NCBI GenBank assembly: GCA_003693705.1
Contig: RBZT01000466.1
Location: 1-20,076, forward strand
Direction: 5' to 3'
DNA length: 20,076 nucleotides
DNA from: Polymyxa betae
Taxonomy: Eukaryota > Endomyxa > Phytomyxea > Plasmodiophorida > Plasmodiophoridae
Shown in pieces: positions 2-18,718 of this stretch. How positions within the stretch are numbered: the stretch's first letter is position 1; each line of letters starts with the position of its first letter. The notes beneath the pieces are model-generated. The model worked only from the letters and a program-made list of their open reading frames with translations, was not told the origin of the DNA and made no database searches. The position numbers and the translations under genes are program-made.

Positions 2-1164
2 GAACTCAATAGTTTTCTCGGAACAAACCCGATGCGTCTCGAACGCTAAGCTAAACGATAGCGACTTGCTAATGAAAGTGCTTTGATTCTAAACTTGGTT
101 GTGTTTTGCAATATATTGGGATGGTGATGAATCTTTACCAGCTTGCGCTTCATCTTGACGCCATAATTTCTCTTCGAGAGCAAGAAGCGCTGAAAACTAT
201 TGTAAAGTTAATAGAGAACAATAAGAAATGGAGCGACTTCGTGCAAACCAAGATACAAACCCAGCGTAATCACCAGAGCGATTTCGTTTCGTACCGAGAT
301 AGTGAGCTTTCACCAGTATTTTCAATTCACCGGTTTTCAAACGACACTGATCAAGTTTGTGAAGTGATTATAAATTCTGATGACAATCTGGACAGCTCCT
401 GCTCTTGTACTTGCACGTTCTTTTGTTCGAATAGACTCCCATGCCGCCATATTTCCCATGTTTTGTCTCAACATTTCAACAGAAGCCCTTTCGATGTCGG
501 CTTCCTTCCTGGTCGATGGAGACTTGATCGCCACCCTCTTCACCAGATGGCATGCCGTCGCCTAGGTCTCAGTGCTGGTATAGAAAGACATCTTTCCGAA
601 CTCAACGAGACTGCAAGCGTTCCAATAAGTTTGCAAGTGGCTGCAAACCAGCAAATTGATTTTCCTCACGATCAAGCTGCGAGTAGCCGCTTAATGCAGG
701 GTTTCAAGCAGGTGGTGGCACAAGCGCATGAATCCCCCAATCTGTACAAGCGAACCAGATTGACGATCGCCAGTTTAATCAACACTGCAGGCTCCCAAGC
801 CACTGACATTTTTGATACAGAAACGGCGCCGGCAATAGGAGTGCTAGCTCCAGAGCGCCAACGGGGGCGTGTCCGAAACCAAGATCTGAAAAAAAAAATC
901 GCTCGGTTTTAGCTCAAACAGGTCAGCGACCTAAACAGCGAGCCAAGGGAGAATGCGCGGTTTCCGTTCTCACAATGTAGTTCCTGTGGAATCCCACCGA
1001 GCAGGGTCATCACGTTGCCCATATACGGTAATATCCTCACAGCCGCTTGCCAGCCAGCATTCGCAGATGCCAACAGCGGCTCCGGTAAACGTCGCCGTTG
1101 CACAGGTTGTGCACGATCAACGAGCTTACAACATGCAGCGTGGTGGCAGGATTTGATGTTCTGA
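2..1164 (+). pseudogene. MULE (Mutator-like) transposase remnant, C-terminal part with SWIM zinc finger
   Basis: The main open frame runs 106-912. It carries a SWIM-type zinc finger at about residues 99-115 (nt 400-450): CSC-T-C near the start, then C113-R-H115, the CxC...CxH pattern typical of MULE transposases. It is followed by a GRWRL-like segment also common after SWIM fingers in this family. Upstream (2-60), another frame reads LGTNP-x-RLER, resembling the NRLE...K motif that precedes the SWIM region in MULEs, so the N-terminal side is frameshifted and continues beyond the window edge. The frame stops at a TAG (910-912) and then stays open in the same phase to a TGA at 1162-1164. This tail has two CxxC pairs (CSSCG and CTGC). 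No catalytic DDE region is inside the window. SWIM-MULE identity is a family inference; the cysteine/histidine pattern and the broken frames are directly visible. Confidence 0.75.
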
Positions 1165-1305
1165 TTGCGAATCGAGAGGGATTCAAATCACAGAATCACA
1201 TCTCAGCGGTTGCCCTCTCCAATCGAATCCACAGCCCAAGTAAAACATAAAAGGTCCATCTCGGAGAATTTTTTACGCGTTCTCTTTAAGATTCGTTATG
1301 TGGTG
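1165..1305. other. non-coding spacer between MULE remnant and left palindromic array
   Basis: I find no supported gene, RNA or repeat here. It separates the MULE tail from the first CATTATG half-site and is the outer flank of the putative large element. Confidence 0.5.
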
Positions 1306-1332
1306 CATTATGACCCATAATGGGCAACGTTG
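1306..1332 (+). repeat. left inverted terminal-like repeat of the large element
   Basis: CATTATGA-CC-CATAATGG-GC-AACGTTG. It matches the reverse complement of 8972-8998 at 23 of 27 positions. Outside it the two flanks diverge at once (3 of 8 positions match). Confidence 0.65.
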
Positions 1333-1575
1333 ATTCAAGCTCCTTTCTGGTTCATAATGGGTAAACTTATAAATACATTATGGTCTTCCACTATGGATCA
1401 TTACGGTCGCCCTTATGGTCCTTTATGGAGGCCTTGTGTTTTCAAGGTGGGTCTCCATTATGGATTATCATTATGGTCAGCAATGGTGAGTCATAATGTA
1501 AAGAGCTGAAACTCCATTTTGGAAAGTTCTGTTGTCCATTATGGCCCATGTCGTTGACCGCAATGGATCATAATG
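1306..1575. repeat. left subterminal array of CATTATGG/CCATAATGG palindromic half-sites
   Basis: About ten degenerate half-sites or pairs are spaced roughly 20-50 bp apart, for example at 1306, 1352, 1376, 1389, 1458, 1491, 1536 and 1561. CCATTATGG and CCATAATGG are reverse complements, and pairs are separated by two to four bases, so each pair can form a hairpin or a dyad binding site. Such arrays are typical of transposase-binding subterminal regions. Binding here is inferred. Confidence 0.7.
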
Positions 1576-1757
1576 TCTGTTATCATGATCAGTTTATCAA
1601 TAAGACGTTGTTTAATACTAGCTATATTAAATATGTTTACAAATCATATGATGAGAATTCAGATGTGGGATTATATGTTTTGTGCTTGCACTGAGTTAAA
1701 TGTGGAACGATGTCATTGTGCGCAGTTTGCTCATAACGGTTCTTTGACTCGGTTATC

Positions 1758-1937
1758 ATGAAGTCATGCTGGGCGTGTGTAGACTCGGGTGCAGAGACGC
1801 AGGCTTGCCGTCCATATCTGTTACGAAGTCATCATCAGCGCAAAGTCCACAAGACTAAAGCTGTTGCCTGTATTCGCAAGTTTATGACCGCATCTTCGTA
1901 TGTAGACCTGTGCCAGATCTGCCAACAATATGAATGA
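1758..1937 (+). CDS. small Cys/His-rich ORF, unrecognised, possibly an N-terminal exon of the transposase
   Basis: This 59-codon frame starts at ATG 1758 and contains CWAC, a further Cys ten residues on, an HHQRKVH stretch and a CQIC near its end. The spacing of Cys and His is suggestive of a metal-binding module but fits no family I can name. It overlaps by four bases (ATGA) the ATG of another frame at 1934-2281, which has no recognisable motif. Lying just inside the left array and upstream of the Plavaka-like transposase, it could be an exon or a remnant of that gene. It may equally be chance. Confidence 0.2.
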   Translation: MKSCWACVDSGAETQACRPYLLRSHHQRKVHKTKAVACIRKFMTASSYVDLCQICQQYE

Positions 1938-2259
1938 CATTTACACATAATCATAGATCCGATGCCGATTTGATAATCTCACATCTCGACCATATGAATG
2001 TGCAATTCAACCAACAAAGACAGAGCATGACCGGTATCGCGTCGTGTTCTGATTTAGAACATATTTGCCGGCAAAACTCTCAATTGGAACATTTCGTTGC
2101 CCTCATGAATGACAGCGTGGTCGCCATGATTGAGGTACTCTCATTTTCTTTTTTAAGTGATCACCGATCAGATTATGAAAACAGGCTTGTGAATCCTCTG
2201 GATCAGAGAGATGGGACCTCCAAAAACTGTCCAATGATGTTTGCGCAGACTGTGATGAA

Positions 2260-5200
2260 TTGGTGGCTGACAATGATCTAGCATACAGCCCACCTTCCGC
2301 TGACAACTCTATGCACATGGTTGACATTGGAGATAATTTACCAGACTCTTGTAGGATAGACATTGCGATTCTCTGCAAAACAACCAAACAGCTGAATTGT
2401 CGCAGACGAAATGTGTGCTCAACGGTGTATCATTCAATATCCAGAATTTCGGGCACCTAACTCCCCAGCTCATCGAGATTTTCTCTATTGGCCATGGCCA
2501 AACAAGCAATGGATGTCAGCTATCAGCTGGAGTGCTTCCCACCTGGGCGAATACTCAGATAATAAGCATCGTGAGTGGATGAAGTATTGTTTTCTTGATC
2601 CCCATCTACCGCACAATTTCCCTACTACATCTGAGGTCGACAATTGGTACAGCGAGAAGTTAAAAGAGATTGTGGGAACAAAAAACAGTTTGCTTGCCTT
2701 CACTCGGTTTGGTAGAATTCGAGAGTCCGGGTCACAAGCCTTTCCTAATGCTAAGCATAAGAGAATACTTACGTCGACTGTGTACCAATCCGAAACTGGC
2801 CGCTGAAATTGATTTATACCCAAGATTACCAGCTGTATCCGGAGACTTCGAGCTGAACGAATCTGCTTTCTGGAGAGCACAGTATCCTGCTCCTTGTGCA
2901 GTTTTGCCCTCCAATAGTGTTACAGAACAAGACTTGGTTTTCTGGTGCGGTGATTTCCACTTCGTGGAAGGTGAGTCTCTCCTGTGTACTGACAAACTTT
3001 GTCAAATACTGCTGTTAATATTGCCTTATTGGACCCCACCCGACGTCTCCATGGATGCAAGTCGTTGTCGTGTTCCAGTTTTCAAAGTGGCGTCGTACGA
3101 TTATCGGTTTAACAGCTCTTCTGTGGATTATGATCTATTGAAATCGCTTGGCTCATTTTTATTGCAACATGAGACAGGTTGCTAGTGGATTTCTAAGCAA
3201 CATTTCGGTTCGAATGCTTCCCATCCAGGAACGCGAACAAGGCACCAAGATTGCTGGTAATCGTTGGAAAATCTAGCTATGGAGTATGCCAATGGCTGTG
3301 AGCGGCCTATTCCAGTGTTCTTTATTGGGATTGGTGCAGGTGGAGATGATTTGAATGTAAGTCGAACTAAGGCAAACTTCGGTAATAATATGTAAGTCTG
3401 ACGTTGGGTTCAACACACCGAAGCTCTACCTGATCGCTTAAGCAGATATATCACTTGTACATCACATCCGAAAAGGTTGAGAGATCAAGGTACCTGGAAC
3501 CTTTTTGCCTTGTGTGAACGGAACCCATTACCTTATCTGTGGCTGCAGTTATTGAAGCAAATTAATCAGTGCCGGTCGGGAACAAACTTTGCAAAATTCA
3601 TTTGCCTACATTTGGACTCTGTAACCTTAGGATTGATCCATTAATATCTCCACATCATGGCTTGCGCAGAAGAATCGTGGTCGTTCCATTTCTCTCTACA
3701 GGAATTGGTGACAATCCAGCTTCTTTAACTATGTGCGGAATGACATCAGGGCGACGCTGCCGCTTTGCTTGGGATTATGGGCTCGCTGAACTTCCAGCTG
3801 CCGTGCCGAACTGCGTTCCAGAGCCTTCAGGCAGGCGAACTTTGGGCCAAGCTGTAGCCATATCAAAATGGGCAGCAACAGCTTCAACCTCGGAAATCAA
3901 GACAATGCAGAAATCAACTGGAATCGCTCTTCTTTCGCCCTACTGTACATCTTTAATTGAGGAACATGCGAGAATGGAAGTTGATGCATATCAGTTGTTC
4001 GGTCCGGAGCTCTTGCACACTTGGAGTTTGGAACTATGCAAATACATTTTGAGGCTTTTGCTGAAACAACTGCTATTGATGGATCATGAACTTATCGATA
4101 TTGTGGAGGAAGCGTTGAACGAGACCAACTGGGTTGAACTTCCCGCCAGGCTCAATGGTCAGTATATTCTGAAACATATTAACTCAATGGTTGGCAAACA
4201 GCTCAGAGCCACCATGATGGCGTTGCCTTTGGCTCTGCGGTCCTTGAATTATAACAATGGCTCTTCTGGCAAAGTGCTGATCATTTGTGATACCGTTGCA
4301 GAGGTTGGGTGACACGTATGCACGTTCGATACCTGTAATCTTGAACCAGATGATGAGACTGGCATATCAACGCCCATTTAACCAACCAGAACAGTTCCGA
4401 GCGCTGGGGCAAACTTTACAAGACCACTGTCGGGCAATGGGATTCGATTTTTGGGCCATGTCAAAGGCCACACGGTTCTGAACCATCTGTGCGATCTGAG
4501 CGAATTGCTTGGAAGTCCCTCACATTGGAGCAGGTCAGAAAACCATAACATCACTGCACCTGTGACATTGATTGATTTAGTGAGTTTTTGGAATCGACCC
4601 ATGTCACAGATCGTGATTTTATATCGAAAAGCAATTGTCTGAACATTTCCAGAGACATTGCCATACACCACCAATTACGAGCTGTCAATGCCCACATCAG
4701 AGACGGTGGATGGTGGCCTTCAGATTACAAAGATCCGTCCTCTGAATTTGTGGTGGCTGGAAAAGAAGCATTTAGCTACGCAACGTTTGCAGAAGAGATG
4801 TCAGATGCAGTAATCATCCTCTATCAGACACTAGACGAGGGTCTCGATCCTGTCCAGTTGGATGATTGTGTACCACAAGAAACCATAACCAAAATATGTG
4901 ACGCTGTTAGAGGATGGAAGCTCTATAAGTGTTATAGATGCAGAAAAACCAAGATGCGAACAGGCGAATTCTTATCTTGTCTCGACAAAGTCATGAATAT
5001 GGGCCACAATAATTCTTGTGCGAGGCTTCAGCCCGACAAGGACAAATTATGTGTAGTCGGAACACGCATCTATGACATTCGGTCATTGAACCAGTTCTAT
5101 TTCACTGGTACTTCGTCAAGGTTGCTCAACATTTACCCACATAAGGATTTCAAGTTTAAGCTTATGATGAGGCAGTTTTGCGGGCATGAGGGCTCTTCGT

Positions 5201-5283
5201 GTCATGAGAATGACATTCTCAATCATGACCAATCCAACAGCATCTATATTGGGCATTCTCGCTTCATTTTCAAAATTAATTGA
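2260..5283 (+). pseudogene. Plavaka-like (KDZ superfamily) transposase, multiply frameshifted
   Basis: The pieces fall in order as in fungal Plavaka transposases. An acidic N-terminal stretch lies at 2260-2410. A YWPWPNKQWM segment (about 2486-2515) is followed by a region ending in KLKEIVG. A SIREYL...NPKL...DLYPR segment lies at about 2750-2825. GDNPASLTMCG at 3707-3739 leads into CRF and, with a one-base shift, CRFC. The hallmark FGPELLHTW...LCKYILRLL lies at about 3998-4065, then YILKHINSMVGKQLRA at about 4160-4215. GHTVLNHL lies near 4460, ESTH at 4591, NISRDIA at 4642-4662, and DGGWW before 4720. These correspond to the TPVEILHT...K-Y, G-RQF, TE-FES-N, SRDIA and SGGFW motifs I know from that family. 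At least five frame changes are visible (near 2410, 2690, 3190-3570, 4310 and 4480-4590), one in an A-run at about 2680. Some may hide introns. The protein is not encodable as it stands. Confidence 0.75.
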
Positions 5284-5647
5284 TGGTGGTCATCAGGTAA
5301 CTGATATAAATTGAAGAGTTCTGGTTGGCACGTTCTGCGCAAATCACCTCAATATCTGACGGAAGGTTAGCTCACTGTCTGTGCTACTCATCTGCAGTTG
5401 TGGCCTTACCGATTTTTGTAATTTCGAATGACTGCTTGAATTTGGAAACAATGGGTGGCAGTTCTCGTAAGGGGTTTTCGCGTCCTAGTATTGTAGGCAC
5501 ATATTTTTACTGCCAAAGGTACACAGTAATTATTGGGCTTTCTGATACTGTTGTGAATATCCGCGACCACATCTTTGCTAAGAATTATCTTGAAATGGCG
5601 AGAGAGGTGATCAGCAACAACTCTAATTGATTCTCTGAGAGATTCAT
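5284..5647. other. transposase 3' flank, no supported gene
   Basis: A 101-codon frame (5325-5630, +) is open but shows no motif I recognise. It could be the decayed C-terminal tail of the Plavaka-like transposase in another phase. I do not call it a gene. Confidence 0.3.
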
Positions 5648-6268
5648 TTAGACTTGACCACAGCTGTTATAGTTTGTTGAGGGACGCTTCAACATTCCGT
5701 TGTTTGGGTATCTAATCAGGATATTAGCTTTTTTATCGCAGCGGATTTTCGCAGTGGTAACTTTGATTGTTGTTTGATGATGCAATGTTGAGTCTCCAAA
5801 CCGGATCGCTTTTGATTTGGGTCCTGAGAGCTCCTTTTTTAACGACGATATCGCTGGATTCCAGAAGATTTTAATCATTTGAGGTTTGAAATTTCCCTTG
5901 CCAAATTGTGATTCTCTTTCGGTCTCACGCTTCAAACCTTATCTGACTAAACTGTCTTCTTCGTAAAATCCGTCCCTATTAAGAGTCTGTGATCGTTCTC
6001 TATTTTTCCGAGCCTCAACGTCCAGAGAAGGTACGCTGTCCTCTGGTGAGACATCCAGGTCATCGCTTGTGTAAATCGACATTGCTTCATCTGGTGACAA
6101 GGTCACCTCATCGTCCATCATGATGCTCATGGAAATAGGGATGGATGTATAAATATTAACTGAGAAGCGATGTGTCCTGGAAAACTGCGTGGGCAATTGA
6201 GACATTGTCTGTTCGGAATCTATCCATCCATCGTCATGGTTGCTGCAGTATCTTTGGAATCCCCCCAA
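5648..6268 (-). pseudogene. unrecognised minus-strand ORF with one in-frame stop
   Basis: Two open stretches, 6268-5942 and 5938-5648, lie in the same reading phase and are separated by one TAA (complement of 5939-5941). Together they span about 206 codons. The N-terminal half contains an acidic, serine-rich stretch (MMDDEVTLSPDEAMSIY, then SDDLDVSPED) and the C-terminal half is basic (FWNPAISSLKKELSGPKSK, later KIRCDKKANI). I recognise no domain and no catalytic motif. It runs head-to-head with the three-exon gene that starts at about 6236 and overlaps it slightly. The acidic-then-basic composition could also come from a non-coding frame. The call rests on phase continuity alone. Confidence 0.3.
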
Positions 6269-7430
6269 TCGGAGGCCGCCACGACCGTTGATGGTACACC
6301 TAGAATCTTAGATACGGCTTCCGCCCGTCGGCTGGCTTTCAGTGATGATATCCCTCATGATCGAGAACAATCATACCGCGAACAAGTTTGCCACATCTGA
6401 AGTTTGAGAATGCCGATTGAACTTGAAACTGGATCTGTCGAATCTGTTGAAGAATTGGTTGAAAAAGCGCTTTATGCTGGTCAAGTCAATGAGAACTATG
6501 AGATCATTGACCCCAATGGTTGGTAGCAGAATATATCATCATTATTCCCAGATGCCATCCATTTGGTGAACGCCGATTTCCAAGACCAAATGGTTGCTGC
6601 TTTTAAACAGCTGGCCATCAAGATCGACCGAATGGGTCAGGAGATTTCTGAGATACGGGAATTGCTCAAGCCAATCACCGCTAGTCTGTGGGTGCCCCCT
6701 CCTAGCATGATTCCTGACGTTGCCATCGCGTATTTCGAATCTAAAATGATGGAGACTTCGGACAGCGCATACTTTCAAACTTTACTCCAGCGAAAACACC
6801 ACGATCAGATTACCGTAAACTTTTGATTGAAATGGATATGCGAGTCTTATGGATAGTGGTCTCTAACAGGACAATATTCAATTGTCTAAGGCAACGAAAG
6901 TTGAGATTTCGGAAATCAGCGCCAATCCCAGCGAGACGAAGCGTCAAGCTAAGGACTTCTGCAAAAAATACCTGACCCGTCTGAATGAATCGGATGCGTA
7001 AAATTTGCACGCCTTGATGGCGGAAGCGAAAGAAAAACTGTTCGGTCGCTTGATTAAAACGCGGCCAGGATTGGCGCTCTCAGAATACGGATATAGCCGG
7101 GCAGACTGTGACAGCCTCGTTACTGCTCATGCCCTATTTCTGGTAAAATATAATGGTCAAACCACAATATATAAGCCAGTCTAACCTGTTTAACTTCAGG
7201 TTGCACTGACAGCAAACAATGACTTCCAAACACCTGGACGTCCTGGCAAAGTAGCCAAGACCGTTGCAAACGCTGATACTGCAGAAGTATCGTTTTGGTC
7301 CCAGTATTCCACTTTTTGCAAGAAAGACAATCATCTCTCCAATCGCGTCTCGAACAAAGGCACCGTTGCCGCAAAAATTCTCGCAATCGCAATGCGAGAG
7401 TTTACGAAATGCATGCTTTTACAGAACTGA
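6236..7430 (+). pseudogene. unrecognised three-exon gene (transposon cargo?), splice sites intact but in-frame stops
   Basis: Exon 1 runs to 6814, exon 2 is 6870-7142 and exon 3 is 7200-7430 (TGA). Intron 1 (6815-6869, 55 nt) is GTAAAC...CTAACAG; intron 2 (7143-7199, 57 nt) is GTAAAA...CTAAC...TTCAG. Both are phase 0 and join frames without loss. The start is either ATG 6236 or ATG 6410. If 6236, there is a TGA at 6398-6400. Further stops are TAG 6524-6526 and TAA 6999-7001. From 6410 the product would be about 320 residues: an acidic start, a possible coiled coil (KQLAIKIDRMGQEISEIREL, about 6606-6665), then a charged alpha-rich exon 2 (KRQAKDFCKKYL; AEAKEKLFGRLIK) and a basic Gly/Pro turn (TPGRPGKVAK) in exon 3. 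I recognise no family. It is the best preserved gene inside the putative element. Confidence 0.6.
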
Positions 7431-8681
7431 GGGTGAATAAACAAAACAAACGCTGTATGTCGTAAACCGACTTAAATTATAGGGGTGCGCAGCCCGCGCA
7501 GTCTGCCGGAGTGCCGGCTGCCGTCAGGATATGCCGTTCGGGTGGTACGCTCGGTTTCCCCGACATCACACCATTGTTGATGCTTATGTTGTTGTCGAGC
7601 TAGCCGAGTTGCCGCCGTGGATGCATCTTTACCATCGCTCGTGCATTAAAGCATCAGGGACCACTCGAACATGTTCTCCCGCGCCCCTGTCACGCCGAGG
7701 CCTGTCTAGCGTTGATGACAGTCAACAGTGAGTTCGGTTTCTAACTTATTGTACACTTGTATAACCTTGATAACGCTAAAAAAGTAATAGCTAGGTGCAG
7801 CATGAGTGGTTGGCTGGCTGACTTGTGAATGAGGTGATCTGCGGCGAACGGAAATATTCGACCTTCTAATGTCTTGGTACAAGAATTACACCAATATACA
7901 GGTGCTCTGATAATTTTTACCGAAACCATACTCTTAGGTCTAAATTGATCCTGACATTGAAGGGATGATCTAAGCAGAGGAATTGTTTTGGAATTTTACA
8001 CCAGCTCGCGTCTGGTGATGTTGTTTAGTGATGTGTCGCTTCTTCTTTGATTGATTGGGGCTCCAGGTTACATTTGATTTCTTGGATTGGATTCTGGAGT
8101 ACTGCTTAGTTTTTGAGAAGGTAGTATTGCACTCTGTTGGCGCTTTGATACAGTTTCGCCTTTAACATTTAGTTCCCTAATTTAATCTCTGTTTTTGGAG
8201 TTTTTTTCAAACAATTACACAATAATCTCAAATGGTTACTAATATCGGTGATTCTTTTATAGGTTATAGGATATCATTGTTACAATGTGGACTTGCTGAA
8301 TTCGTGGGGGCTCTCGTCAGATTTCCGTTTTCGATGGACCAATGTGAGGGTATTTTGCTATGCTGACACTGATCTCACAGACGGCGATTATATGGTCTCA
8401 TGTTAGCACCGCAATTCTTGATAGCTGCAGGTCAGTGCGCCGATCCACTGCGGCCAATAACAATTATAAGCTGAATGAAATGGTCGGAGTGATACCCAGC
8501 CCCATAGCAAATTAGCAGACGTCTAGTTGGTGACGCGAGATCGCGATTTCAAGGATCGTTCGTCCTTTCCTTATTCCTGAACCTCTTTTGGTAGCTGATG
8601 GTGATCCTTTTGTATATAGTTTGTTACTCATTATAAAGCGTAATTTATCTCTCAAAAAATTCGTCCAATCCGAGTAGAATT
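7431..8681. other. non-coding stretch inside the large element
   Basis: 7470-7735 is relatively GC-rich and contains a 66-codon open frame without any recognisable motif. 7740-8681 is AT-rich with long T and A runs and no convincing frame. No tRNA, LTR or TIR was seen. Confidence 0.5.
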
Positions 8682-8998
8682 AATGGACCATATCAACATC
8701 TCATAAAGTATTGATTAGTAATTACTTCATGGTCCATCTTGGATTGAATAAGAATTGCTACCTGGGATTTCTGAATAAACCATTGTGGTCAATAACAATT
8801 AAACATGATGAGATTCCGGAATGGATGACTCCGGTTGTACATTGTGGTCCACAATAAAATTCACTTATGCATTTTACTGAATTTACATTATGACCCATGA
8901 AGGATCTCCATAATGGACCATAATTGCGATACGCATTATGGGCCATAATGGATCTCCGATCCTGAATGCTACAACGTTTGCCATTATGATTCATAATG
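8682..8998. repeat. right subterminal array of CATTATGG/CCATAATGG half-sites
   Basis: Degenerate half-sites lie at about 8683, 8728, 8781, 8840, 8886, 8910, 8933 and 8981. They include CATTATGGGCCATAATGG (8935-8952) and CCATTATGATTCATAATGG (8981-8999), both near-perfect dyads. The array is denser and better conserved toward the outer edge, as in the left array. Confidence 0.7.
8972..8998 (-). repeat. right inverted terminal-like repeat of the large element
   Basis: The reverse complement reads CATTATGA-AT-CATAATGG-CA-AACGTTG and matches 1306-1332 at 23 of 27 positions. Confidence 0.65.
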
Positions 8999-9300
8999 GA
9001 CGCACTTTGCTGTGTCCCTATAACCCAGGATTTGACGAACTGCAAATTGCTGAGGCACAATTACTCAACTTTTGAAATATACATGTTTAAGAAATAAAAA
9101 ATAGGAATCATGCTGAGCAAAACGGGGAACAGTAATTGATATATCCCAAGGAAAACTATTAACCGATATTCAATTCTGATCATAAAACCATCTTTGGCGG
9201 CGAAGGCAAGGCATCGGATCTGCAATAACAACGCCGATCACAGAGGACTGAGACGCTGGGTGAACAGCACAGTGATAAGTTATCTCGAGTATCAAACCAG
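8999..9300. other. non-coding spacer
   Basis: AT-rich flank of the right array with no supported gene. Several short open frames overlap here on both strands but show no motif. Confidence 0.4.
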
Positions 9301-9352
9301 GAGGAAGCGCAGCCTGATTTCAGCCGGAGGAAGAGCAGCCCAGTTTCAGCCG
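9301..9352. repeat. 26-bp imperfect tandem duplication
   Basis: Two 26-bp units, 9301-9326 and 9327-9352, share GAGGAAG-GCAGCC and TTTCAGCCG, with a decayed third start (GCGGAAGAAACG). The unit length is not a multiple of three. It lies at the 3' end of the minus-strand membrane-protein frame, whose stop (9320-9322) falls inside unit 1. Confidence 0.7.
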
Positions 9353-10034
9353 GCGGAAGAAACGAGATTCCGCTTTGCGAAGACAAATCAACACCATCAC
9401 CTCTACTACAAGAATCCAAAATGCTGAAATACTGCATGTAGTGGCACAGAGCATTTGAAACCCCCCTTTTCCGACACAAAACTGTATTTTGATGATAGCT
9501 GGACCCAACAGAGCAAGGGCAGCAATGAAGACGCTGGCCAAAAATAAAACAAGCTTATTGGCAATATATCCATATTGATTGGACAGGGGTCGTGAGAATA
9601 TTGGTAATAAATGTTTGTAGGTAAGCAAGAAACCCAGTTCTGCTTACGATATTGATCTCAGCATCGACAGCGGCGTATACCCCGTTCTTTGATACAAGTT
9701 TTACAGAAAAATAAGCCACGAATAACCCGATGACAAATGCCAACGGAATAATCCTATGTGTAAGCCAACCAGTGTTCACCAACCCATCTAGTAGACAGCT
9801 CTCGGTCACCGCAGGTTCCGAACCCGAAATCAGAACAGAGAATGTGAACGCGACAAAGATTGAATCGCTCTGTGCCGCCACGAGAAACATCACCCTGCAA
9901 ATTGAACATCTTTGATTCTGGACAACCGGAATAATACAACTTTGTGTCGTGGAATCGAAATCCTCGGCGTTCTCAGACAATGCTACTAATACCCTACGTT
10001 CGCCTCCCAGAAGTGTCACAACACGCCAATCCAA
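9320..10034 (-). pseudogene. fragment of an unidentified multi-pass membrane protein
   Basis: The 5' part (10034 to about 9648) contains two hydrophobic segments, one near MFLVAAQSDSIFVAFTFSVL and one IIPLAFVIGLFVAYFSVKLV. A second frame (about 9553-9320) adds LVLFLASVFIAALALLGPAI and a segment ending ILVVEVMVLICL, followed by basic residues (LRKAESRFFRRLK). The two can be joined in phase by a candidate 94-nt intron (minus strand GTAAGC at 9647 to AATAAG at 9554), longer than the other introns of this window. Upstream of the first ATG an in-frame TGA separates another basic stretch, so the N-terminus is unclear. The four helices suggest an integral membrane protein, perhaps a receptor or transporter, but there is no diagnostic motif. 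The 3' end enters a tandem duplication and stops early. Confidence 0.4.
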
Positions 10035-10303
10035 TCAGAATCGCGACAAGTCAATCCGACGAAAAAATTCTCTCGGCTTCCTCTTCCGTGACAATATGTT
10101 GGCTAGCATTAAACGGGTGTTCCTACGCTTTTTGTGATCAATTGCGATGACGCCTTTCGACAGGCACTAGATCATTTTTATATACGCCTGTGGATAAATG
10201 GGTTGATGGTCGAAGAAGTCATTGCGATTCATCACAGGACCGGCGGAACAATGCCCGTTTAATACCATCACCTAATTTTCTATTACACTGAAACATATAC
10301 ATT

Positions 10304-10323
10304 AAACCTGTCCGCAAAGTTTT
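10304..10323 (+). repeat. left terminal inverted repeat of the Harbinger element
   Basis: Pairs with 12855-12874. A degenerate direct copy (CCTGTCTGTAAAGTTT, 10369-10384) follows 62 bp inside and may be an internal transposase-binding site. Confidence 0.8.
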
Positions 10324-10474
10324 GTGAGTTTTTCACGCTATTTTTAGAAGATACGCTCAAAAAATCAGCCTGTCTGTAAAGTTTCCGATAAACAAAGGTA
10401 CGTTCAGGAATTGCAATCTTACGTTCGGATAGGCTACGCGCTTGCTAAGCGATAGACCATTGCTGCCTCCGGTA

Positions 10475-11842
10475 ATGGCGAGCCGAGATGATTGGGCAAG
10501 TTCTACTGAAAGCGAGGACGTGGCTCAATGCTATTTAGATGATGATTGCATGCAGGTGCTGCGAAATGTTTATATATCGGTCAGTGAACCAGTTCATTAA
10601 CACACAGCATCAGGTTCTGTATATTTTGCTTCAAAGATCACGGTTAGCAGCATTAGCAGTAGCAAACATAATGGATATTCTTGAGGATGATGATGATAAG
10701 ACGAGCGAATGGATGGATGGGGATTTTTCTGTAATTCCAGACGCTCCTGTTTATGATTACTTGTCGTTATCCGTTGGCCACGAAAGTATTTTCACCAGTG
10801 AAACTGGGTTCTTGTTTTCGGAATGGAACGAGCTTGTTCAAAGAGTTAGCCCAGTTATCAATTCTAGAGGAAGAGACGGCAGCATCAAAGTCAAACCTGG
10901 AAGATTTCCGAAGTTAAATGCTGAACAGCGCCTGCTAAACTGTATAACTTATTTGAAGAAGGTACTGCGATTGAGGTGAAATTTAATGAATTTGTGCCCT
11001 TATATTGCCTCTAGGACGATAAAATTCGAGGGTGCTCTTCTCGATGAAATTATAATCGTTCATCCATTTGCAGCGACTGTATTTTCATTTGCGAGTGTAT
11101 CATTTATGCTCTTGGCCATGAGCTGGTTTGGCCAAATAAAGAACGACGTATGGACCTAGCCAAGCACTAACCTGAATTTCATGGATGCATCGGCTTTATC
11201 GATGGCACTCTGACAGAGATATCACGCCCTGTTGGGCATTTAAATCCAGATGCTCGTCGTTCTTTCAATGGTTAAGAAGATGTACTGTTTTAATAATTCT
11301 GTCGTAGTAGACCATGACGGGTTGTTTCATCTATGTTGACCCTGGTTATCCTGGATCGTTTCACGATATAAGCATTCTAAAGGCTTCTGATTTATATAAG
11401 AACTGGAGGAATTTCTTTACAGGTGAACTGGACTATTTTGAATACGTGCTTGGAGATCGTAAGGTTAATGAAATTGTCGCAAACTGTTACTAATTGTTTC
11501 GCAAATGCAGCTGGATACCTAGGAGCAGACATGTTCATCATGAGAAGGGTCGATAATCTTGAGGCTGTTGATGTAGATGGGCCATCGATGAATGCATATA
11601 ATCGAAGGCATGCCGGAAAGCGAATTCAGGTAGAATGGGGCATCGGAGGGGTTAAAACGAAATGGAGAGTTCTACAAAATCGCCTTATAATGAGAAGAGT
11701 CAAGTTTTCCATTGTTTTCAAATCCTGCTGTATTTTGACAAATTTTATCCACCGGCGTCGAAGAAATATGGCGATTGTCGAAGTCGGAGACGTTAATGCT
11801 GGCGCCTGGGCAGGAGACGTTTCTGATGATGAAAATGTTTAG
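10475..11842 (+). pseudogene. PIF/Harbinger DDE nuclease (HARBI1-like), 4 exons, two stops and two frameshifts
   Basis: Catalytic subunit of PIF/Harbinger transposition. Exon 1 starts at ATG 10475. Introns are 10556-10607 (52 nt), 10962-11014 (53 nt) and 11459-11510 (52 nt, with TACTAAT). The last join restores LGD-P-GYLGADMFIMRR, the conserved HARBI1 segment, with the Pro codon split across the intron. The acidic triad is present: Asp in FIDGT (11201-11203), Asp in SFHD (11365-11367) and Glu in VEWGIGG (11633-11635). Other family blocks are KKMYC-x-NN, VVVDHDGLF, YKNWRNFFTG and the C-terminal FIHRRRR. Damage: TGA 11045-11047 where the family usually has Trp, TAA 11168-11170, a frameshift at about 11273 (after FNG) and an extra base at about 11328. 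The upstream start and first intron are inferred from phase continuity. Confidence 0.88.
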
Positions 11843-11950
11843 GTTTTTATTTGATTACATTTTTACTTTAACGATAGAGTTAAAGCCAATATTTCTGAAT
11901 TGGACTGACTTTCAGTGATAACATGATGTTGTTTTTTAAAGGAAAGTATA

Positions 11951-12703
11951 TCATGCTGGTTCTTTAGAAGCTCTTGATTCTGCTTCTGAATGCTTCAGTT
12001 TTTGTGTTTCTTGGGCATTGATGTCGTTAGTTTTTAGCGCTTGATAACGGTCCGATTGCTGATGGAAGAAACTCGCTGCTTGTTGAGTCCCAATATCAAT
12101 GGATTTGCAAATCGATTGAATTGCAACAATAGAGCGCCGACGGTGATGGCTTTTTGAAACAGCAACAACGTCGTCAGAATCATCAGCAACCGTAGAGTCC
12201 TCGCCAACATCAACTTCCGACTTTTGACTAGCGACGATCTTGGGTGATTAAAGCTTATTCGAGTTAGCACCCTGAATAATATCCAGGCGACGTTTCTGCA
12301 AGATTTTCGACGCCATCGTATCAGAATCCATGAGTGCAAGCATAATGTCACAATTCTGTAATTCTGGTTTAGCATTCTCCCCATCAGCGTTTGCTGTCCC
12401 AGTGTTTAAACCATCAAGGAATCCACGAAGAGTATCCTTGAGATTTCTTTCATGACGAGCTTGAAGGTTGCATCCTAGTTTATCTTCGACGTCAGCTTTG
12501 ATTTTATCCCAGACAGTCTTGGGAAATTTCTGAGTTGATTTTTGTTTTCTTCCTTTACAGTAGTCGCTGAAATGAAGGTGATGGGACTTCGCTAGTAACT
12601 CGAGAGTTTCTGGGGACACGGGACTAGCCCGTTTGGCTTTCACGTCTTCTGCAACTACCTCAGCGTCATTTTCGGTGCTATCGACGAGTACTGGAACGTC
12701 CAT
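11951..12703 (-). pseudogene. Myb/SANT-like DNA-binding partner of the Harbinger element, one nonsense codon
   Basis: Second gene of PIF/Harbinger elements; its product normally binds the element ends and brings the nuclease to the nucleus. The frame starts at ATG 12703 (MDVPVLVDS). A helix-rich segment at about residues 45-95 (FSDYCKGRK, FPKTVWDKIKADVEDKLG, then ARHERNLKDTLRGF) fits a Myb/SANT-like trihelix with spaced Trp/Phe. The frame meets a TAA at 12248-12250 and then stays open in the same phase to a TGA at 11951-11953, giving 250 codons. The C-terminal half is Asp-rich and then Gln-rich (FFHQQSDRYQALK), consistent with a genuine tail rather than a frameshift. It converges on the nuclease gene with about 108 bp between the stops. 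Confidence 0.75.
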
Positions 12704-12829
12704 CGATGGTCCTAACTTTCAACTTGGACGTTTGCTCTATTTTCGGGCCTTCGGGAGATTTTCCAACCACACGTACGGACATTAAGAACTGCGGCGCCCA
12801 GCCTCCGCAAAAAATCGGACCAACGTAGT

Positions 12830-12843
12830 TTCAACCGGTTGAA
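12830..12843. repeat. 14-bp perfect palindrome near the right end of the Harbinger element
   Basis: TTCAACCGGTTGAA. Its 12-bp core TCAACCGGTTGA occurs again at 15294-15305. Confidence 0.8.
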
Positions 12844-12854
12844 CGAAAAATTAC

Positions 12855-12874
12855 CCCATTTTACGGACAGGTTT
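12855..12874 (-). repeat. right terminal inverted repeat of the Harbinger element
   Basis: Reverse complement matches 10304-10323 at 15/20 positions, perfect over the first 11 bases. Confidence 0.8.
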
Positions 12875-12877
12875 ATT

Positions 12878-13466
12878 GTACGACTGTGATTCATTTCAAC
12901 CAAGAGGGTGCCTCAAGTAGAATTTGCAATAATATTTATGAAGATCACATGAATATAAGTGCGAGTGGCTCGATAATTTTCTCTTAGACAATTTTAATGA
13001 CCATCTAAGTGGTCTATAATCATAATGCAATGATATCGTTGTAACATGAATCACAGACAGGTTGGGGCTCTGATCGCATCGGTACCGGCGGCCGCCCGAG
13101 TTTCTATAGAGGCCATCATCTGCTCTGTCCTTTTACTGACAGAGGGAATGCAGATCAATAACAGGTTTTTTCGCATGCCCCTTTAAGGCGATTCACAATT
13201 AGGCAAAGTCAATTCGCATTGGCGAATCTTGACAACTATTGTCATGAAGACGGTTTCCTGACTGTTTTGGATTGGATTGGATTGGATTGCACTATTTGTT
13301 AGCACCTGACTGGTTTAATTGCTTCAAGCGAAAACGAGTCGTTATTGCTCGTGGTACATTTCGCTCTGCCTTGAATATCGCTATATTTTCATTTTCTCTC
13401 TAACGAATATGGATACAATCCGCCTTGTTGGCGGAACAGTGGTGCACTGAATCGCAGTTACCTCAA
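12878..13466. other. non-coding spacer with a short microsatellite
   Basis: No supported gene. At 13267-13289 there are four TTGGA units plus TTG. The rest is unremarkable. Confidence 0.6.
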
Positions 13467-13958
13467 ATGACAGACGATTTGACGCGTTGGGTGTACCCGG
13501 TTGCACATCTAATGTACACGGCCAATTTTTACATGGCTCGGCCATTGTCCGAGGACACACGGCTGTATCTACAGCGTCAATTTGCCGGCAGAATTCGAAC
13601 CGCCGGGGCACGGTTGATCGAGGCCTATACCTGGTGCTGTGCCTACGCTACATTCAAACCGTTGGCTGAAGTCGCTGATTTTTTTATTGCATTCAAACGT
13701 CCTGTTCCCGATCGCCTGCAGGCAGCACTTTCGAAGGTCGACACGGCAGTCGTCCGATCGCGGATGCTCAAAGAGGTCGGTAAAACGGTTCGAAATCCTA
13801 CTCGCGGTACTGAATTTCATATCACTTATACGACAAACGCCGCAATCCTGACGGCGCGGCCCATTTCCTGTACCTGTTTCGTCGCGTCATTCATCCGTTA
13901 CATTCCAACTCAAGTCAGATGCTCTGTTTCCGCTATGGTGCCCTCTTGTTCCACCTGA
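13467..13958 (+). CDS. unrecognised ORF upstream of the SET-domain pieces, possibly its 5' exon
   Basis: Open frame of about 163 codons from ATG 13467 (MTDDLTRWVYP). The frame is open back to 13404 but without an earlier ATG. Up to about 13860 the composition is protein-like: helical, Leu/Ala-rich, with FKPLAEVADFFIAFKRP and a basic stretch RSRMLKEVGKTVRNPTRG. It has no motif I recognise. The last 30 codons are Cys/Ser-rich and look less coding, so an exon may end near 13850. Same strand and adjacent to the SET-domain fragments, it may be the N-terminal part of that gene; this is inference from position only. Confidence 0.35.
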   Translation: MTDDLTRWVYPVAHLMYTANFYMARPLSEDTRLYLQRQFAGRIRTAGARLIEAYTWCCAYATFKPLAEVADFFIAFKRPVPDRLQAALSKVDTAVVRSRMLKEVGKTVRNPTRGTEFHITYTTNAAILTARPISCTCFVASFIRYIPTQVRCSVSAMVPSCST

Positions 13959-14959
13959 TCTAGAGACTGCTGTGACTGCGCAAACGCTGCGCCCAGTCAG
14001 GCAATGCAGCTACTCAAAAAGCCCAATGTCGATATGTGCAACCTAAAGAACGGCCTGAAAATGGATTGCAACTCTGATTGTCCCGGCTCGAACGAGCGGG
14101 ATTGCTGGAATCAGATCGTCAGACAAGCCTGGTATCCTAAACTGGTTCTTGGCCAAACATTGCACTGTGGAACAAGCTTGTTCGCTGATAAGGAGATTCC
14201 CGCTTTCACTTTCATCGTTGAGTACACAGGCAAGGTATTAGAGCGGTTTCGTCAGATCGCGATAAAGCTGCTACTAAAATCGGCAGCACTTCAGTCAGTG
14301 GTAAATGAATTGTGTTTTATTTCCAGCTCGAATCCCAGCTTCATTCAGCTCAGTCCGAACGGACACCGTGCGGACTCCGCGGGGGTCTAGCCCATTAATA
14401 TTACGGTACGTCTTCATACTTTAGTCTTGTTCGCATCTTTGTTACGCATCAGATTTATGCTTGAGTCATCAAGGCTTCTCTGCGTGCGCTGATCTTCAAT
14501 CTGCGTACGCACTTTAGAAGGGATAAGATTTTATAATGTTTTTTTAATAAATCTGATACAGTATACTTGTTCCCATCATCTAGCAAACATGTCGTAATCT
14601 GGTGTGTAGAATGTGGAGGGAGGTGAATGGGAGAACAACCCCAAATATGACGCAAACTACACGGCCTACATTGATCCGGCAACGATGCTCTGCCAACATA
14701 TGATCGGAGGCAGTTATCCACTTGCTGCTTATGCGAACAGTATGTGTGACCCCAACTGCGAACTGAAGCCCTGGCGAGTCCCTAATGACGGCAAACGACC
14801 CGCTGAAAGAAAAATACTGGTGTCCAAACGTCCGATGAAAAAAGGAGAGGAAATCGGTGGGACTATCTGAAAGAAAAGATTTGGCGCCAATTCGTAAATG
14901 GCCTGTGCAGTGCCTGCTGTCCCTGCAGTCGATGTCGGGCGTCGCGTCAACAGGCATGA
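13959..14959 (+). pseudogene. SET-domain (putative histone lysine methyltransferase) gene, interrupted and frameshifted
   Basis: First block (13959-14255): a Cys-rich pre-SET/AWS-like cluster (CCDC, DMC, DCNSDCPG-type spacing) followed by CWNQ. Then comes a canonical SET start, LFADKEIPAFTFIVEYTGKV. Second block (about 14600-14867): DANYTAYIDPATM, then PLAAYANSMCDPNCEL (14736-14762), equivalent to the N-HS-C-x-P-N cofactor-binding motif, then KKGEEI. The catalytic Tyr motif WDYL follows at 14858-14869 but in the next phase: one base is missing after GEEI (14856-14857). After the shift the frame runs on through a post-SET-like CSACCPCSRC to TGA 14957-14959. 14256-14590 is intron, insertion or decay. 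SET proteins methylate lysines using S-adenosylmethionine; this copy is not encodable without the shift. The domain call is strong, the target unknown. Confidence 0.75.
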
Positions 14960-15793
14960 GGGACAGAGCGATATGTTAGCCCCTGACTCCAACATTGACC
15001 AACAATAAGGGTCCCAACACCCGGCAACCGGACCGCTGGTCGTGGTGGTAGACCGCAGGCGACCCATGCAACTGCTCGGGTGTCGCCGGTAACACTACCA
15101 ATAAACAAACAGTGAGACCCTGCTACTCTACCACCTTTCGGGGTGGCCGGGCCTGATATTTTTCTCAAAATCAAGAACGAGGTGTTTCGAAACAGTAAAT
15201 GAGCTGGGTTTGTTGTCTACCCCACTTGTGAGGTTTTCGCAGCCGGCTAACGCATGCCTCTGCGCTGGTCGCCCATCTGTTGAACGCCGCTGATCAACCG
15301 GTTGAACACTGTTGCATTTACCGTTGCCAGCAGTTGCAATAATCGTTGTCAGATGTTGTACTTACCGTTGCTATCGTGGTTCGGTGAAAATGGCAACCCT
15401 TTTATGTACCACCTGTTTGTACAAGGGTTCCTAACCGTCACGCGAGCGGGTTTCCGCGTGTTTCCCAACCGCTGTCGACAGTTAACGCAAATGTTGTTGA
15501 GATTTTATGTGAATATTAAAAAAACAATGGGCGCAACGCATCCCGCCAGAGGAGCGCTTTCACCTCCAGCGATTGACATGCACACTGTGCAAAACTAGCA
15601 GTAAGGGTTCGGAAGTCAGACATACAGACTCCAGGAAGCCAACCACATGACCGCATTTCGTGCTAGGCGGCGAAACGGGCGAATCGAAACCTATCGGGCA
15701 TAGCACATGCACCGGAGGGCGGGCAATCGGGGCCACGAACCCTGCTTTCTCCTACTTTAAATACGCGACATCGGCGCCGCTGTTGGAATCCAA
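14960..15793. other. region without a supported gene
   Basis: Open frames exist on both strands (for example 15302-15598, +) but none shows a motif. 15294-15305 holds the palindrome TCAACCGGTTGA, also found in the Harbinger right end. A small GC-rich hairpin, CCACC-tttcgg-GGTGG, lies at about 15131-15146. Confidence 0.4.
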
Positions 15794-16037
15794 TCAGGCA
15801 TCAGACTTTAAATTGATGACAGAGTCTCCGCTGTCGTTGCTGCTCGAAACCATTGCGTCCGATTCATCTACTGTTCCGAATACTTCTGCAGCGATGTGAC
15901 TGCGTTCAGCCGTGGGACGGTCTGCGACCGCTGGCTCCGGTGGCGGTTGATCGATCCCGAGCACCTGACGCCATCCTCTCCCCCGTTGCATAGGGATCTG
16001 TCGCCTGCCCCGCATGGCGACGACGACGCCCTAGGAC
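15794..16037 (-). pseudogene. 3' fragment of an unrecognised minus-strand gene, left of the pogo insertion
   Basis: A minus-strand frame (ATG at 16015) reads RGWRQVLGID, then a Pro/Ala stretch, and ends in an acidic Ser/Asp-rich tail (DESDAMVSSSNDSGDSVINL). This looks like a true protein C-terminus. A second frame ending at 15868 covers the same bases and is the one in phase with the ORF on the far side of the pogo element. No family recognised. It abuts the TA target of the pogo insertion and may be the downstream part of the gene whose upstream pieces lie at 18063-19080. Confidence 0.25.
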
Positions 16038-16039
16038 TA
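16038..16039. repeat. TA target-site copy, left of the pogo element
   Basis: TA directly outside the left inverted repeat. The matching TA is at 18061-18062, as expected for the Tc1/mariner/pogo superfamily. Confidence 0.8.
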
Positions 16040-16065
16040 CCATAATTCTTGCGGGAACAACCCCT
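16040..16065 (+). repeat. left terminal inverted repeat of the pogo element
   Basis: Pairs with the reverse complement of 18035-18060; mismatches at positions 3, 14, 16 and 19 only. Confidence 0.85.
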
Positions 16066-16440
16066 TTGCCCAAATAGCCCCCAATGGTGCACATATTTAT
16101 TGCGTTCGTTACGGAATTTCAGCATCTCTATCGTCGGTGCAAAGAGAGGAAAAATGTCGCAAGCCAACGCTGAGATCGTTGGCCTTCGAAAGCCTGAGAA
16201 TGGGCGCACGTGTGAGCTGCATGAGGCCTGTGAACTGGTTAGTCGGTGTCGTCACGCTGTTGCGGTTCAAATTCACAGTCATTGAGAGTAGCTGCTCCAA
16301 TTTTTTCTGTAAACATTAACCCCAGTTTACACGATTCTCTTAACTAGGGAATGGTTTAGTCGAAGAAGCGGAGGCCGCCCATGCAGTAACCAACGGTAAC
16401 GAATCTTGTCGTGTCGCATTTCTCCCCAACAGCTGCATGC

Positions 16441-17876
16441 CTAATCGCGAGCGATTTGTTGGGAAGTTCGCTCAGGTGGTAGAACTATATTCCATTTCCG
16501 AAAATTCCCACAAACGTCGAGAAGATGCCCGAAATTGTGGAATGGAGTCGTGCGTGCTCCTGGATGCAATTCCTGTATTAGAATAAAAACACAGTCACTG
16601 CTGTGAGGCAGCCTTAATTCCCACATGGCTCCATTTGTTAAAGTCGATACCTGGCTCCAGGCGTACAGCGCCCGGAGTGCGATGTCCTGCCGACGAGGTT
16701 TCTCATTCGGCGCTGACCGATTGATGAGAAACTCGGTATGATTTTGTTGAAAGTGGAATTTAAACGGTCGGTTTATACCTACATCAAGTACCTGCAGCTT
16801 GGAGGTATAAGCAGCCACAATGACTTCGGCCTGAAAACAATGTCAAGGTAACGAAATGTACATTTCTGCATATACTTCGGTCCCAAGTTCGGCAAGCTTG
16901 TCGATTACGGTGGATTCCAGATGAGCCGAAAAGCAGTCAAGCAACAGGTCGGAGGCACGAGCTTGTCGAGCTAGAATCCAAGGTTGCCAAACCCGTTTAA
17001 TCCACTCGAGCATGATTTCTACATCCATCCAAGCGTTCGTCTGCACAGTCATGACAATGCCTCCAGGGTATCCGCGACTGATGAAGGCACCGACCACCTC
17101 ACGATGGTTTTTTCCCTTGCGTATTCCCTTGAAGACGAGGAAAACCGGAAGCTTCTTGCCCGTTAACGTGACCCCCAGCAGAGCGGTGGCACGCCCGGAG
17201 GAGCCGTTTCCGGTCACAACAATGGTTCGCCGACCACGACGAGACAAAGTTGTTTTAGCCGGAAGATCAAACTGAATGTCTGTTTCGTCGATATTGACCA
17301 CGAACTCTGGTGGAATTGCCATCATTGTGATAGGATCATTGACAGCAGCAACGAAGTCGTCAATGATGGTAGCCTCGTGTCGCGTGTTCTGGGAGACATG
17401 GGTTGCACGCCTCTGTACAAACCCTTCTCTCTCGAAAAACCGATAAATTCGTTTCCTCAGAGCCCAATCATTGCCGACACAAAAAGATGGCTGGAATCTA
17501 TAGATAAAATGAATGTATTCTTATAATACTATCCTAAAAATCGTGAAAACAAAAAGCCAATACCGACGAACTTTATGAACCAGCATCGATCCAGTGACAA
17601 CATGGTCCGGAGCCGTATTTGATCAATAAATTCTCGAAGATGATCCCAAACATCTTGGCCCTCTACGATGGCTTGAATGGAAGACAGCGGCCGGTGCATT
17701 CTGGCCCGACGGTCGATGTCATCGCTGATGTCCAGCTGCTTCTTCCATCTCTTGATATTTCGCCAGTCGACGCCATTTTTCTTTCCTGTTTGATACAGCG
17801 CCCCAGGCCGTTCAAATGCTTTATTGACAATGGCTATTTTCTCTCCAATTGTAAACCGACAGATGTTGCGGCCCAT
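16441..17876 (-). CDS. pogo-family transposase (CENP-B-like HTH plus DDE_1), three exons, nearly intact
   Basis: Cuts and pastes the surrounding element at TA sites. Exon 1 (17876-17572, ATG at MGRNICRF) holds the helix-turn-helix: FTIGEKIAIVNKAF and WRNIKRWKKQL, followed by the first half of a CENP-B-type domain. A candidate 74-nt intron (17571-17498; a 66-nt variant breaks phase) leads to exon 2 (17497-16876), with ALRKRIYRFFEREGFVQRR and then the DDE_1 core. Acidic residues are Asp in NIDETD (17289-17287), Asp in LLLDCFSAHL (16938-16936) and, after a 45-nt intron (16875-16831, CTTGAC...TTTTCAG), Asp in LQVLDVGINRPFK (16785-16783). No stop interrupts these exons, about 440 residues in all. 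Near 16640 the usual C-terminal motif (NKWSHVGI) lies in the next phase, so a single frameshift probably replaces the true end (TGA 16595) by a tail ending at 16441. Confidence 0.85.
16831..16875 (-). other. 45-nt intron in the pogo transposase
   Basis: Minus-strand GTATAT...CCTTGAC...TTTTCAG. Removing it eliminates a TGA and brings LAELGTE next to AEVIVAAYTSKLQVLDVG, the expected family order. Phase 0. Confidence 0.75.
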
Positions 17877-17975
17877 GGTACTATGATGATATGCAATCCG
17901 CACATGGTTCGAATCGTCGTAGCCCGTGCCGTTTTTTGGGGCCGTTTTCAGACGATTTTATGAAAAGAAAGAATT

Positions 17976-18057
17976 TATTTCTTGCACAAATAACCCCCTT
18001 CATACAGAAAAAAGGCCGCGCTCTGCACATTAGTAGGGGTTATTTCGGCAAGAATTA
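17976..18057. repeat. inverted repeat (22-bp arms) at the 5' end of the pogo element
   Basis: Arms 17976-17997 and 18036-18057 match at 19/22. The right arm is part of the terminal repeat and the left arm an inverted inner copy. It lies about 100 bp upstream of the transposase ATG (17876), where a promoter or transposase-binding site would be expected. Confidence 0.75.
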
Positions 18058-18060
18058 CGG
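18035..18060 (-). repeat. right terminal inverted repeat of the pogo element
   Basis: Reverse complement of 16040-16065 with four mismatches, followed by TA at 18061-18062. Confidence 0.85.
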
Positions 18061-18062
18061 TA

Positions 18063-18517: not shown

Positions 18518-18689
18518 GGGTGCGTTGTAGAAGCGTCGAGGGCGTCAACTCGTGATTCGTGACTCGCCACGTCGGCAGAAGCAGCCCGGTATCCCGCATT
18601 GGTTCGGGCAGCAGTGGCAGCACTGTATCAATCCACCAGTTCAGCTTGTCGGCGATGATCTGCGTCAGATCGTGAGGCCGCGACTCCAA
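18492..18689 (-). pseudogene. unrecognised coding-like fragment
   Basis: The minus-strand frame reads QIIADKLNWWIDTVLPLLPE, then GLLLPTWRVTNHELTPSTLL. The Trp/Leu/Pro pattern and lack of low complexity suggest real protein. No family recognised. It is probably part of the same gene as the neighbouring minus-strand fragments; the phases differ, so an intron or frameshift must lie at each junction. Confidence 0.3.
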
Positions 18690-18718
18690 ATGCCCTAGAT
18701 AACCATCATTTGGTAGTT

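What the first reader, a model, noticed from the sequence alone, without database searches (positions are those of the whole stretch)
1306..8998. A large Plavaka-like transposon bordered by inverted arrays of palindromic half-sites
The sequence shows two arrays of CATTATG/CATAATG dyads 7 kb apart whose outer 27 bp match in inverted orientation (23/27), plus a second inverted match of 13/13 deeper in each array. A KDZ/Plavaka-type transposase lies between them with 2-3 kb of extra coding DNA. I know of no described Plavaka element with this end architecture; that the ends and transposase belong together is inference.
Basis: partly seen in the sequence, partly recalled or inferred. Interest (0 to 1): 0.8.

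Follow-up and report, generated by a model that had tools for sequence, protein, structure and literature searches.

The report
Decayed CACTA-like transposon with arrayed ends
This is the broken remains of a 7.8-kb cut-and-paste jumping gene of the CACTA/RAG-like type, whose ends carry clusters of a short palindromic DNA sequence that were probably docking sites for its own proteins; it is a new family with a familiar design.

The parts
1230..9014 (+). Whole element, 7,785 bp, 5'-CACAGC...GCTGTG-3'
   Evidence: Empty sites in C494 and C408 join 1230 to 9015; C141 reads through the site too (by eye); first base C in 5 of 5 left ends
1228..1229 (.). Left target-site duplication, TC
   Evidence: Filled versus empty site letters
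9015..9016 (.). Right target-site duplication, TC
   Evidence: Filled versus empty site letters
1230..1235 (+). Left terminal inverted repeat CACAGC (perfect 6 bp; the left end continues CCAAGTAAAAC, conserved in related copies)
9009..9014 (-). Right terminal inverted repeat (CACAGC read inward)
1306..1575 (.). Left subterminal array: 9 exact CATTATG/CATAATG half-sites plus one-mismatch copies, ending about 180 bp upstream of the transposase start
8682..8998 (.). Right subterminal array: 6 exact half-sites, all in 8886-8998, plus degenerate ones further in
1758..5280 (+). Transposase gene, broken (open pieces in three frames; a likely intron by eye); RAG1/Transib-type DDE by homology
   Evidence: fold of a fungal relative
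3566..4309 (+). Longest open piece of the transposase (248 aa) with the GDNP motif and the LHT..L..KY motif
6236..7415 (+). Second gene, broken, no Pfam family above cut-off; candidate subterminal-repeat-binding or accessory protein
127..1229 (.). Left flank: repeat holding a SWIM-zinc-finger reading frame (76-912), probably an older MULE-like element (recalled type), into which the transposon inserted
9015..9373 (.). Right flank: continuation of the same interrupted repeat

Best explanation
A decayed cut-and-paste DNA transposon of the CMCT clade (CACTA/EnSpm-Mirage-Chapaev-Transib), CACTA/EnSpm-like in layout, 7,785 bp, inserted into an older repeat with a probable 2-bp target duplication. 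Shown: the ends, empty sites, two formerly selected genes on the plus strand, half-site clusters at the left ends of two families, homology of the transposase to fungal proteins, one of which models with the RAG1 fold. Inferred: the transposase recognised and cut at the CACAGC ends; dimers of an element-encoded DNA-binding protein (the second gene, or the Cys/His-rich N-terminus of the transposase) bound the 17-bp palindromes CATTATG-N3-CATAATG in both arrays, pairing the two ends and, because the left array sits just upstream of the transposase gene, perhaps also controlling its transcription, as TNPA does in maize Spm/En.
Against: The C(2)C zinc pair of the clade is not seen in strict form: the window and its one metagenome relative P0001 have CRFA where most fungal members have C(2)C. 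Only the window's copy keeps a recognisable right end. The 2-bp duplication rests on one insertion; with the ends read as ACAG.. it would be 3 bp (TCC). No Pfam family recognises the window's transposase. The commonest Pfam match among the 51 rows of A3 is an unrelated short model, Rv0078B (9 rows, best E 0.00048), which I take for chance; RAG1 and tnp2 touch one row each. The window's own transposase piece gave a worthless model (pLDDT 37); the fold result is for a relative. Foldseek alone ranks Transib weakly (E 0.018, probability 0.47). That the arrays bind any protein is untested.
Confidence: 0.87

Rival explanations
1. A Plavaka or KDZ element.
For: Kojima (PMC12730594, passages read) places Plavaka in the same CMCT clade, reports Plavaka duplications of 2-3 bp, and notes that some rust EnSpm transposases resemble Plavaka.
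Against: No Pfam match, so neither Plavaka (PF18759) nor KDZ (PF18758), to the joined transposase at E up to 10; none among the families listed for the fungal relatives (0 of 35 rows; none among the 25 shown of 27 families for 51 rows). Ends are CAC..GTG, not TGT..ACA (PlavakaA) or CATCA..TGATG (PlavakaB). The genome searches with both Pfam models were silent, but so were their controls, so they do not count.
Confidence: 0.08
2. A distinct new lineage of the CMCT clade, equal in rank to EnSpm or Plavaka: 2-bp duplications with CAC..GTG ends, an altered zinc motif, and palindromic arrays.
For: 2-bp duplication rather than the 3 bp given for EnSpm; CRFA in place of C(2)C in the window and P0001; only one relative of the 248-aa piece in the search of 5.8 billion proteins, none for the joined transposase.
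Against: Only about 20% identity to one fungal family was measured; no tree with reference lineages could be built here; one duplication only, with a 3-bp reading still possible.
Confidence: 0.25
3. Two arrays belonging to unrelated repeats that happen to flank a transposase relic.
For: The right end has no second DNA copy, so the pairing of right array and transposase is seen only once.
Against: The empty sites lose everything from 1230 to 9014 as one unit; the arrays match in inverted orientation at the outermost 27 bp; the right array matches left arrays of other copies in inverted orientation (C528 E 8e-6, C53 and C200 E 0.001, C425 E 0.004; weaker matches of E 0.1 and above occur in both orientations).
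Confidence: 0.03

Closest known systems
CACTA/EnSpm elements of plants (Spm/En, Tgm, Tam1)
   Same: CAC..GTG termini, short terminal repeats, subterminal regions of several hundred bp with direct and inverted copies of a short motif able to form palindromes, two element proteins (PMC8978399 and PMC2613891, passages read)
   Different: Probable 2-bp rather than 3-bp duplication; terminal repeat only 6 bp perfect; different motif; transposase not recognised by the Pfam tnp2 model; host unnamed
Fungal EnSpm and Plavaka elements (Kojima 2025, PMC12730594, abstract and passages read)
   Same: CMCT clade; CA..TG termini; 2-5 bp duplications; H(3-4)H before the last acidic residue
   Different: Plavaka ends differ (TGT..ACA or CATCA..TGATG); the EnSpm duplications given are 3 bp; the word 'subterminal' has no occurrence in that paper's main text
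Transib transposons and RAG1
   Same: Fold of a fungal relative of this transposase; terminal CACAG equals the first five bases of the V(D)J heptamer (recalled)
   Different: Transib makes 5-bp duplications (recalled) and has no such arrays that I know of; 10-13% identity in the structural alignments
CMC elements Sly1-1 of Neurospora (PMC4592977) and CNIRT6/CNEST of Cryptococcus (PMC12810828), passages read
   Same: Fungal CMC elements; Sly1-1 also carries a transposase plus a second gene of unknown function; CNIRT6 makes 3-bp duplications and has a CACTG end motif
   Different: Homologues of the two Sly1-1 genes in Chaetomium are divergently transcribed; here both are on one strand; 'subterminal' has no occurrence in either main text

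Membership tests
CMCT clade (CACTA/EnSpm-Mirage-Chapaev-Transib) | 5'-CA..TG-3' termini | tested here: met
   CACAGC..GCTGTG fixed by empty sites and copies
CMCT clade (CACTA/EnSpm-Mirage-Chapaev-Transib) | 2-5 bp target-site duplication | tested here: met
   TC, 2 bp (3 bp TCC under the other end reading); one insertion
CMCT clade (CACTA/EnSpm-Mirage-Chapaev-Transib) | DDE transposase with RAG1/Transib-like fold | tested here: met
   Met for a fungal homologue; the window protein is linked to that family by profile E 3.6e-9; its own model was unusable
CMCT clade (CACTA/EnSpm-Mirage-Chapaev-Transib) | C(2)C motif after the second D | tested here: inconclusive
   CRFA in window and P0001, with other conserved Cys nearby; both Cys present in 90% or more of the fungal rows
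CMCT clade (CACTA/EnSpm-Mirage-Chapaev-Transib) | H(3-4)H before the last E | tested here: met
   GHTVLNHL then SENHN in a separate reading frame (by eye); a pattern scan of 121 proteins matched 7, five of them of the form HxxxHL..E
EnSpm/CACTA superfamily | CAC..GTG termini | tested here: met
EnSpm/CACTA superfamily | 3-bp target-site duplication | tested here: inconclusive
   2 bp on the favoured end reading; one insertion only
EnSpm/CACTA superfamily | Subterminal arrays of short direct and inverted repeats at both ends | tested here: met
EnSpm/CACTA superfamily | Transposase recognised as tnp2 (PF02992) | tested here: not met
   No match for the window protein; 1 of 51 alignment rows, weak, E 0.021. 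So it is filed at clade level only, as CACTA-like
Plavaka | Termini TGT..ACA (A) or CATCA..TGATG (B) | tested here: not met
   CACAGC..GCTGTG; criteria from PMC12730594
Plavaka | Pfam Plavaka domain PF18759 | tested here: not met
KDZ (Kyakuja-Dileera-Zisupton) | Pfam KDZ domain PF18758; duplications of 4-8 bp (PMC12730594, PMC12810828, passages) | tested here: not met
   No match; 2- or 3-bp duplication

The most novel reading that the evidence does not exclude
A separate lineage of RAG/Transib-clade transposons, in a eukaryote of unknown kind, that built a plant-like end system of its own: a dedicated second protein reading 17-bp palindromes spaced one helical turn apart in both subterminal regions, alongside a transposase with an altered zinc site. 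If so, subterminal arrays plus a partner protein evolved more than once, or are ancestral to the clade.
Probability: 0.25. Interest if true: 0.55.

Novelty: new member of a known kind. Interest (0 to 1): 0.36.

Why it matters
The window gives a cleanly delimited element (ends, empty sites, two families) of a transposase lineage that Pfam does not name, and shows by fold that a member of a large group of hypothetical mushroom proteins is RAG1-like. It also offers a further case, beside the well-studied plant elements, in which subterminal array, transposase and partner gene can be compared across diverged families to ask how such end systems evolve.

Tried and rejected
Plavaka and KDZ: rejected as above. 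Arrays as borders: rejected by the empty sites. Satellite or free MITE: 3 left-array DNA matches, the window and two element copies, and no second right-array match; the search skips very common words and missed three more diverged arrays, so this is not final. Structure of the window's own 248-aa piece with one relative: pLDDT 37, not used. PDB sequence search with the joined catalytic part: one chance match, E 1.8. Search with the joined transposase (residues 170-880): none of 7,993 scored candidates at E 0.01. Right ends in other copies: none recognised in the 13 fetched loci. Papers: searches for EnSpm with oomycete and subterminal and for fungal CACTA with subterminal and palindromic returned nothing in the held library; a looser one gave 22 papers, 15 listed, of which I read passages of two (PMC12730594, PMC8978399); one search gave 14, 10 listed, of which I read passages of three (PMC12730594 again, PMC12810828, PMC4592977). 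I do not claim that such arrays are unpublished.

Not done: the genome-wide scan for CATTATGNNNCATAATG, a right-end search with 7300-9040, and own-genome searches with the joined proteins, because the genome machine was busy; no transposase tree with reference lineages; host not identified.

Full report
What is in the sequence. The window is a whole 20,076-bp contig (C265) of an unnamed 24.4-Mb genome in 541 contigs. Exact CATTATG/CATAATG occurs 9 times in 1231-1620 and 6 times in 8660-9014, against dinucleotide-shuffle means of 0.17 and 0.26 (maximum 2 in 300 shuffles each), 0 times in the 7 kb between, 0 times in 1-1230 and 3 times in 9015-20076 (mean 1.72). The outermost 27 bases of the two arrays match inverted at 23 of 27; 20 shuffles of the right arm gave 16-18, and the direct orientation 20.

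Where the element really ends. A DNA search of the genome with 1100-9200 gave 26 matches, the window's own included, and 13 stretches were fetched. C494 holds window 127-1230 joined directly to 9015-9373 at 95%, and C408 holds 572-1230 joined to 9015-9377 at 93-95%; a third, more diverged copy in C141 also reads through the site (by eye). These are empty sites in paralogous copies of a repeat whose left part holds a SWIM zinc-finger frame (18.7 bits, just below the Pfam cut-off of 19.6). Comparing filled and empty letters, the insert is 1230-9014 with TC duplicated. The alternative reading, 1231-9014 with TCC duplicated, is less likely because the first base C is present in all 5 copies that keep a left end (window, C200, C425, C53, C528). 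The element is 7,785 bp, 5'-CACAGC...GCTGTG-3', with a perfect inverted repeat of only 6 bp. The arrays start 76 bp (left) and 16 bp (right) inside the ends.

Copies. C200 (84-85%) has the same left boundary and lacks about 1.1 kb of the transposase region. C425 holds window 1229-1711 and C218 holds 1706-6822 (less about 70 bp), 92-94% identical. The two contigs share a 207-bp stretch at 98% at their junctions and the six bases AACGAT; a Ty3-like gag-pol frame starts beside the junction in C425 and an integrase frame lies beside it in C218 (identified by eye). I infer one copy split by a retrotransposon. C53, C409 and C528 form a second family, 65-71% identical to the window except one 106-bp stretch at 81%, and mostly 84-93% to each other, with short stretches at 77-81%. 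Fragments lie in C299, C474, C48 and C403. None of the fetched copies keeps a recognisable right end, so the right end is documented by the window and the empty sites alone.

Arrays travel with the transposase. In 6 of 6 loci holding the region upstream of the transposase start (window, C200, C425, C53, C409, C528) the same half-sites are clustered there; exact counts in the left arrays are 9, 3, 8, 4, 2 and 6 (shuffle statistics were run for the window only). In C409 the sequence outside the array is not homologous, so its terminus was not counted. Pairs CATTATG then CATAATG exactly 10 bp apart occur 5 times in three arrays (window left, window right, C528); 0 of 20,000 random placements reached that at 10 bp, and 1 at any distance of 7-59 bp. 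The distance was noticed before it was tested, which is why the any-distance figure is the one to quote; C53 and C425, which show it too, were left out as homologues. The full site is thus a 17-bp palindrome with half-sites about one helical turn apart, the kind of site a protein dimer reads; that last step is inference.

Genes. Open pieces of a transposase run from 1758 to 5280 and of a second gene from 6236 to 7415, both on the plus strand and both broken. Between window and C53 the differences concentrate at third codon positions: 105/112/187 in 406 transposase codons (p 2e-7) and 79/59/148 in 281 codons of the second gene (p 1e-10); between window and its close copy C218 there is no significant excess: 86/89/110 (p 0.17) and 13/11/10 (p 0.81). 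C409 (p 3e-6), C528 (p 0.0003) and C299 (p 0.003) also show the transposase excess, C200 weakly (p 0.03) and C474 not (p 0.65); for the second gene C403 shows it (p 0.001), C200 and C48 do not (p 0.58 and 0.085). Matched stretches were pooled without removing overlaps, so codon counts are approximate. Both genes were therefore under protein-level selection between families and have since decayed.

Comparison with the known. Kojima (PMC12730594; [quoted passage not shown] The present ends fit the clade and EnSpm termini, not Plavaka. A background passage in PMC8978399 describes the full-length CACTA layout as terminal repeats, subterminal repeats of several hundred bases with closely spaced direct and inverted copies, and two reading frames, one the transposase and one of unknown function; passages of PMC2613891 describe subterminal palindromes in a soybean element and TNPA recognition of subterminal repeats in Spm/En. 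That is this element's plan. I therefore call it a CACTA-like member of the CMCT clade, without filing it in EnSpm proper, because the tnp2 test is not met and the duplication length is uncertain.

How it probably worked. By analogy with Spm/En: the transposase cuts at the CACAGC ends; a partner protein coats the arrays, brings the ends together and may repress the transposase promoter, since the left array ends about 180 bp upstream of the transposase start. The second gene is the natural candidate for that partner, but nothing here tests its binding. This copy cannot act on its own: both genes are broken.

Verdict. A well-bounded new family of a known kind.

Noticed in passing
10306-12872: A Harbinger-like element: inverted ends ACCTGTCCG.. 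(10306 and 12865-12872), a DDE_Tnp_4 frame at 11381-11839 (+, E 5.9e-9) and a second frame at 12248-12718 (-). Ends by eye.
   Followed up: partly
16843-17520 (-): Pogo/Tigger-type transposase piece (DDE_1, E 7.5e-10; the type name is recalled).
   Followed up: no
76-912 (+): SWIM zinc-finger frame (just below the Pfam cut-off), probably the end of a MULE transposase; it belongs to the repeat that the element interrupted.
   Followed up: partly
14133-14870 (+): Pieces that look like a broken SET-domain gene (weak Pfam match E 0.046 to 14133-14267; the rest by eye).
   Followed up: partly
L034:1-297 and L043:1-297: Contigs C218 and C528 begin with the same 297 bp at 98.7% identity, each cutting off a copy of this element: another repeat inserted there or an assembly break at a repeat.
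   Followed up: no
L034:5382-5588, L035:5555-5761: A Ty3-like retrotransposon with terminal repeats of about 207 bp (98% alike) and a likely AACGAT duplication splits one copy of the element across two contigs.
   Followed up: partly
P0002-P0121: A large family of unannotated mushroom proteins without precomputed Pfam domains; one member models confidently as a RAG1-type transposase.
   Followed up: partly
7417-8650: 1.2 kb between the second gene and the right array with no DNA match elsewhere in the genome and no gene recognised.
   Followed up: no
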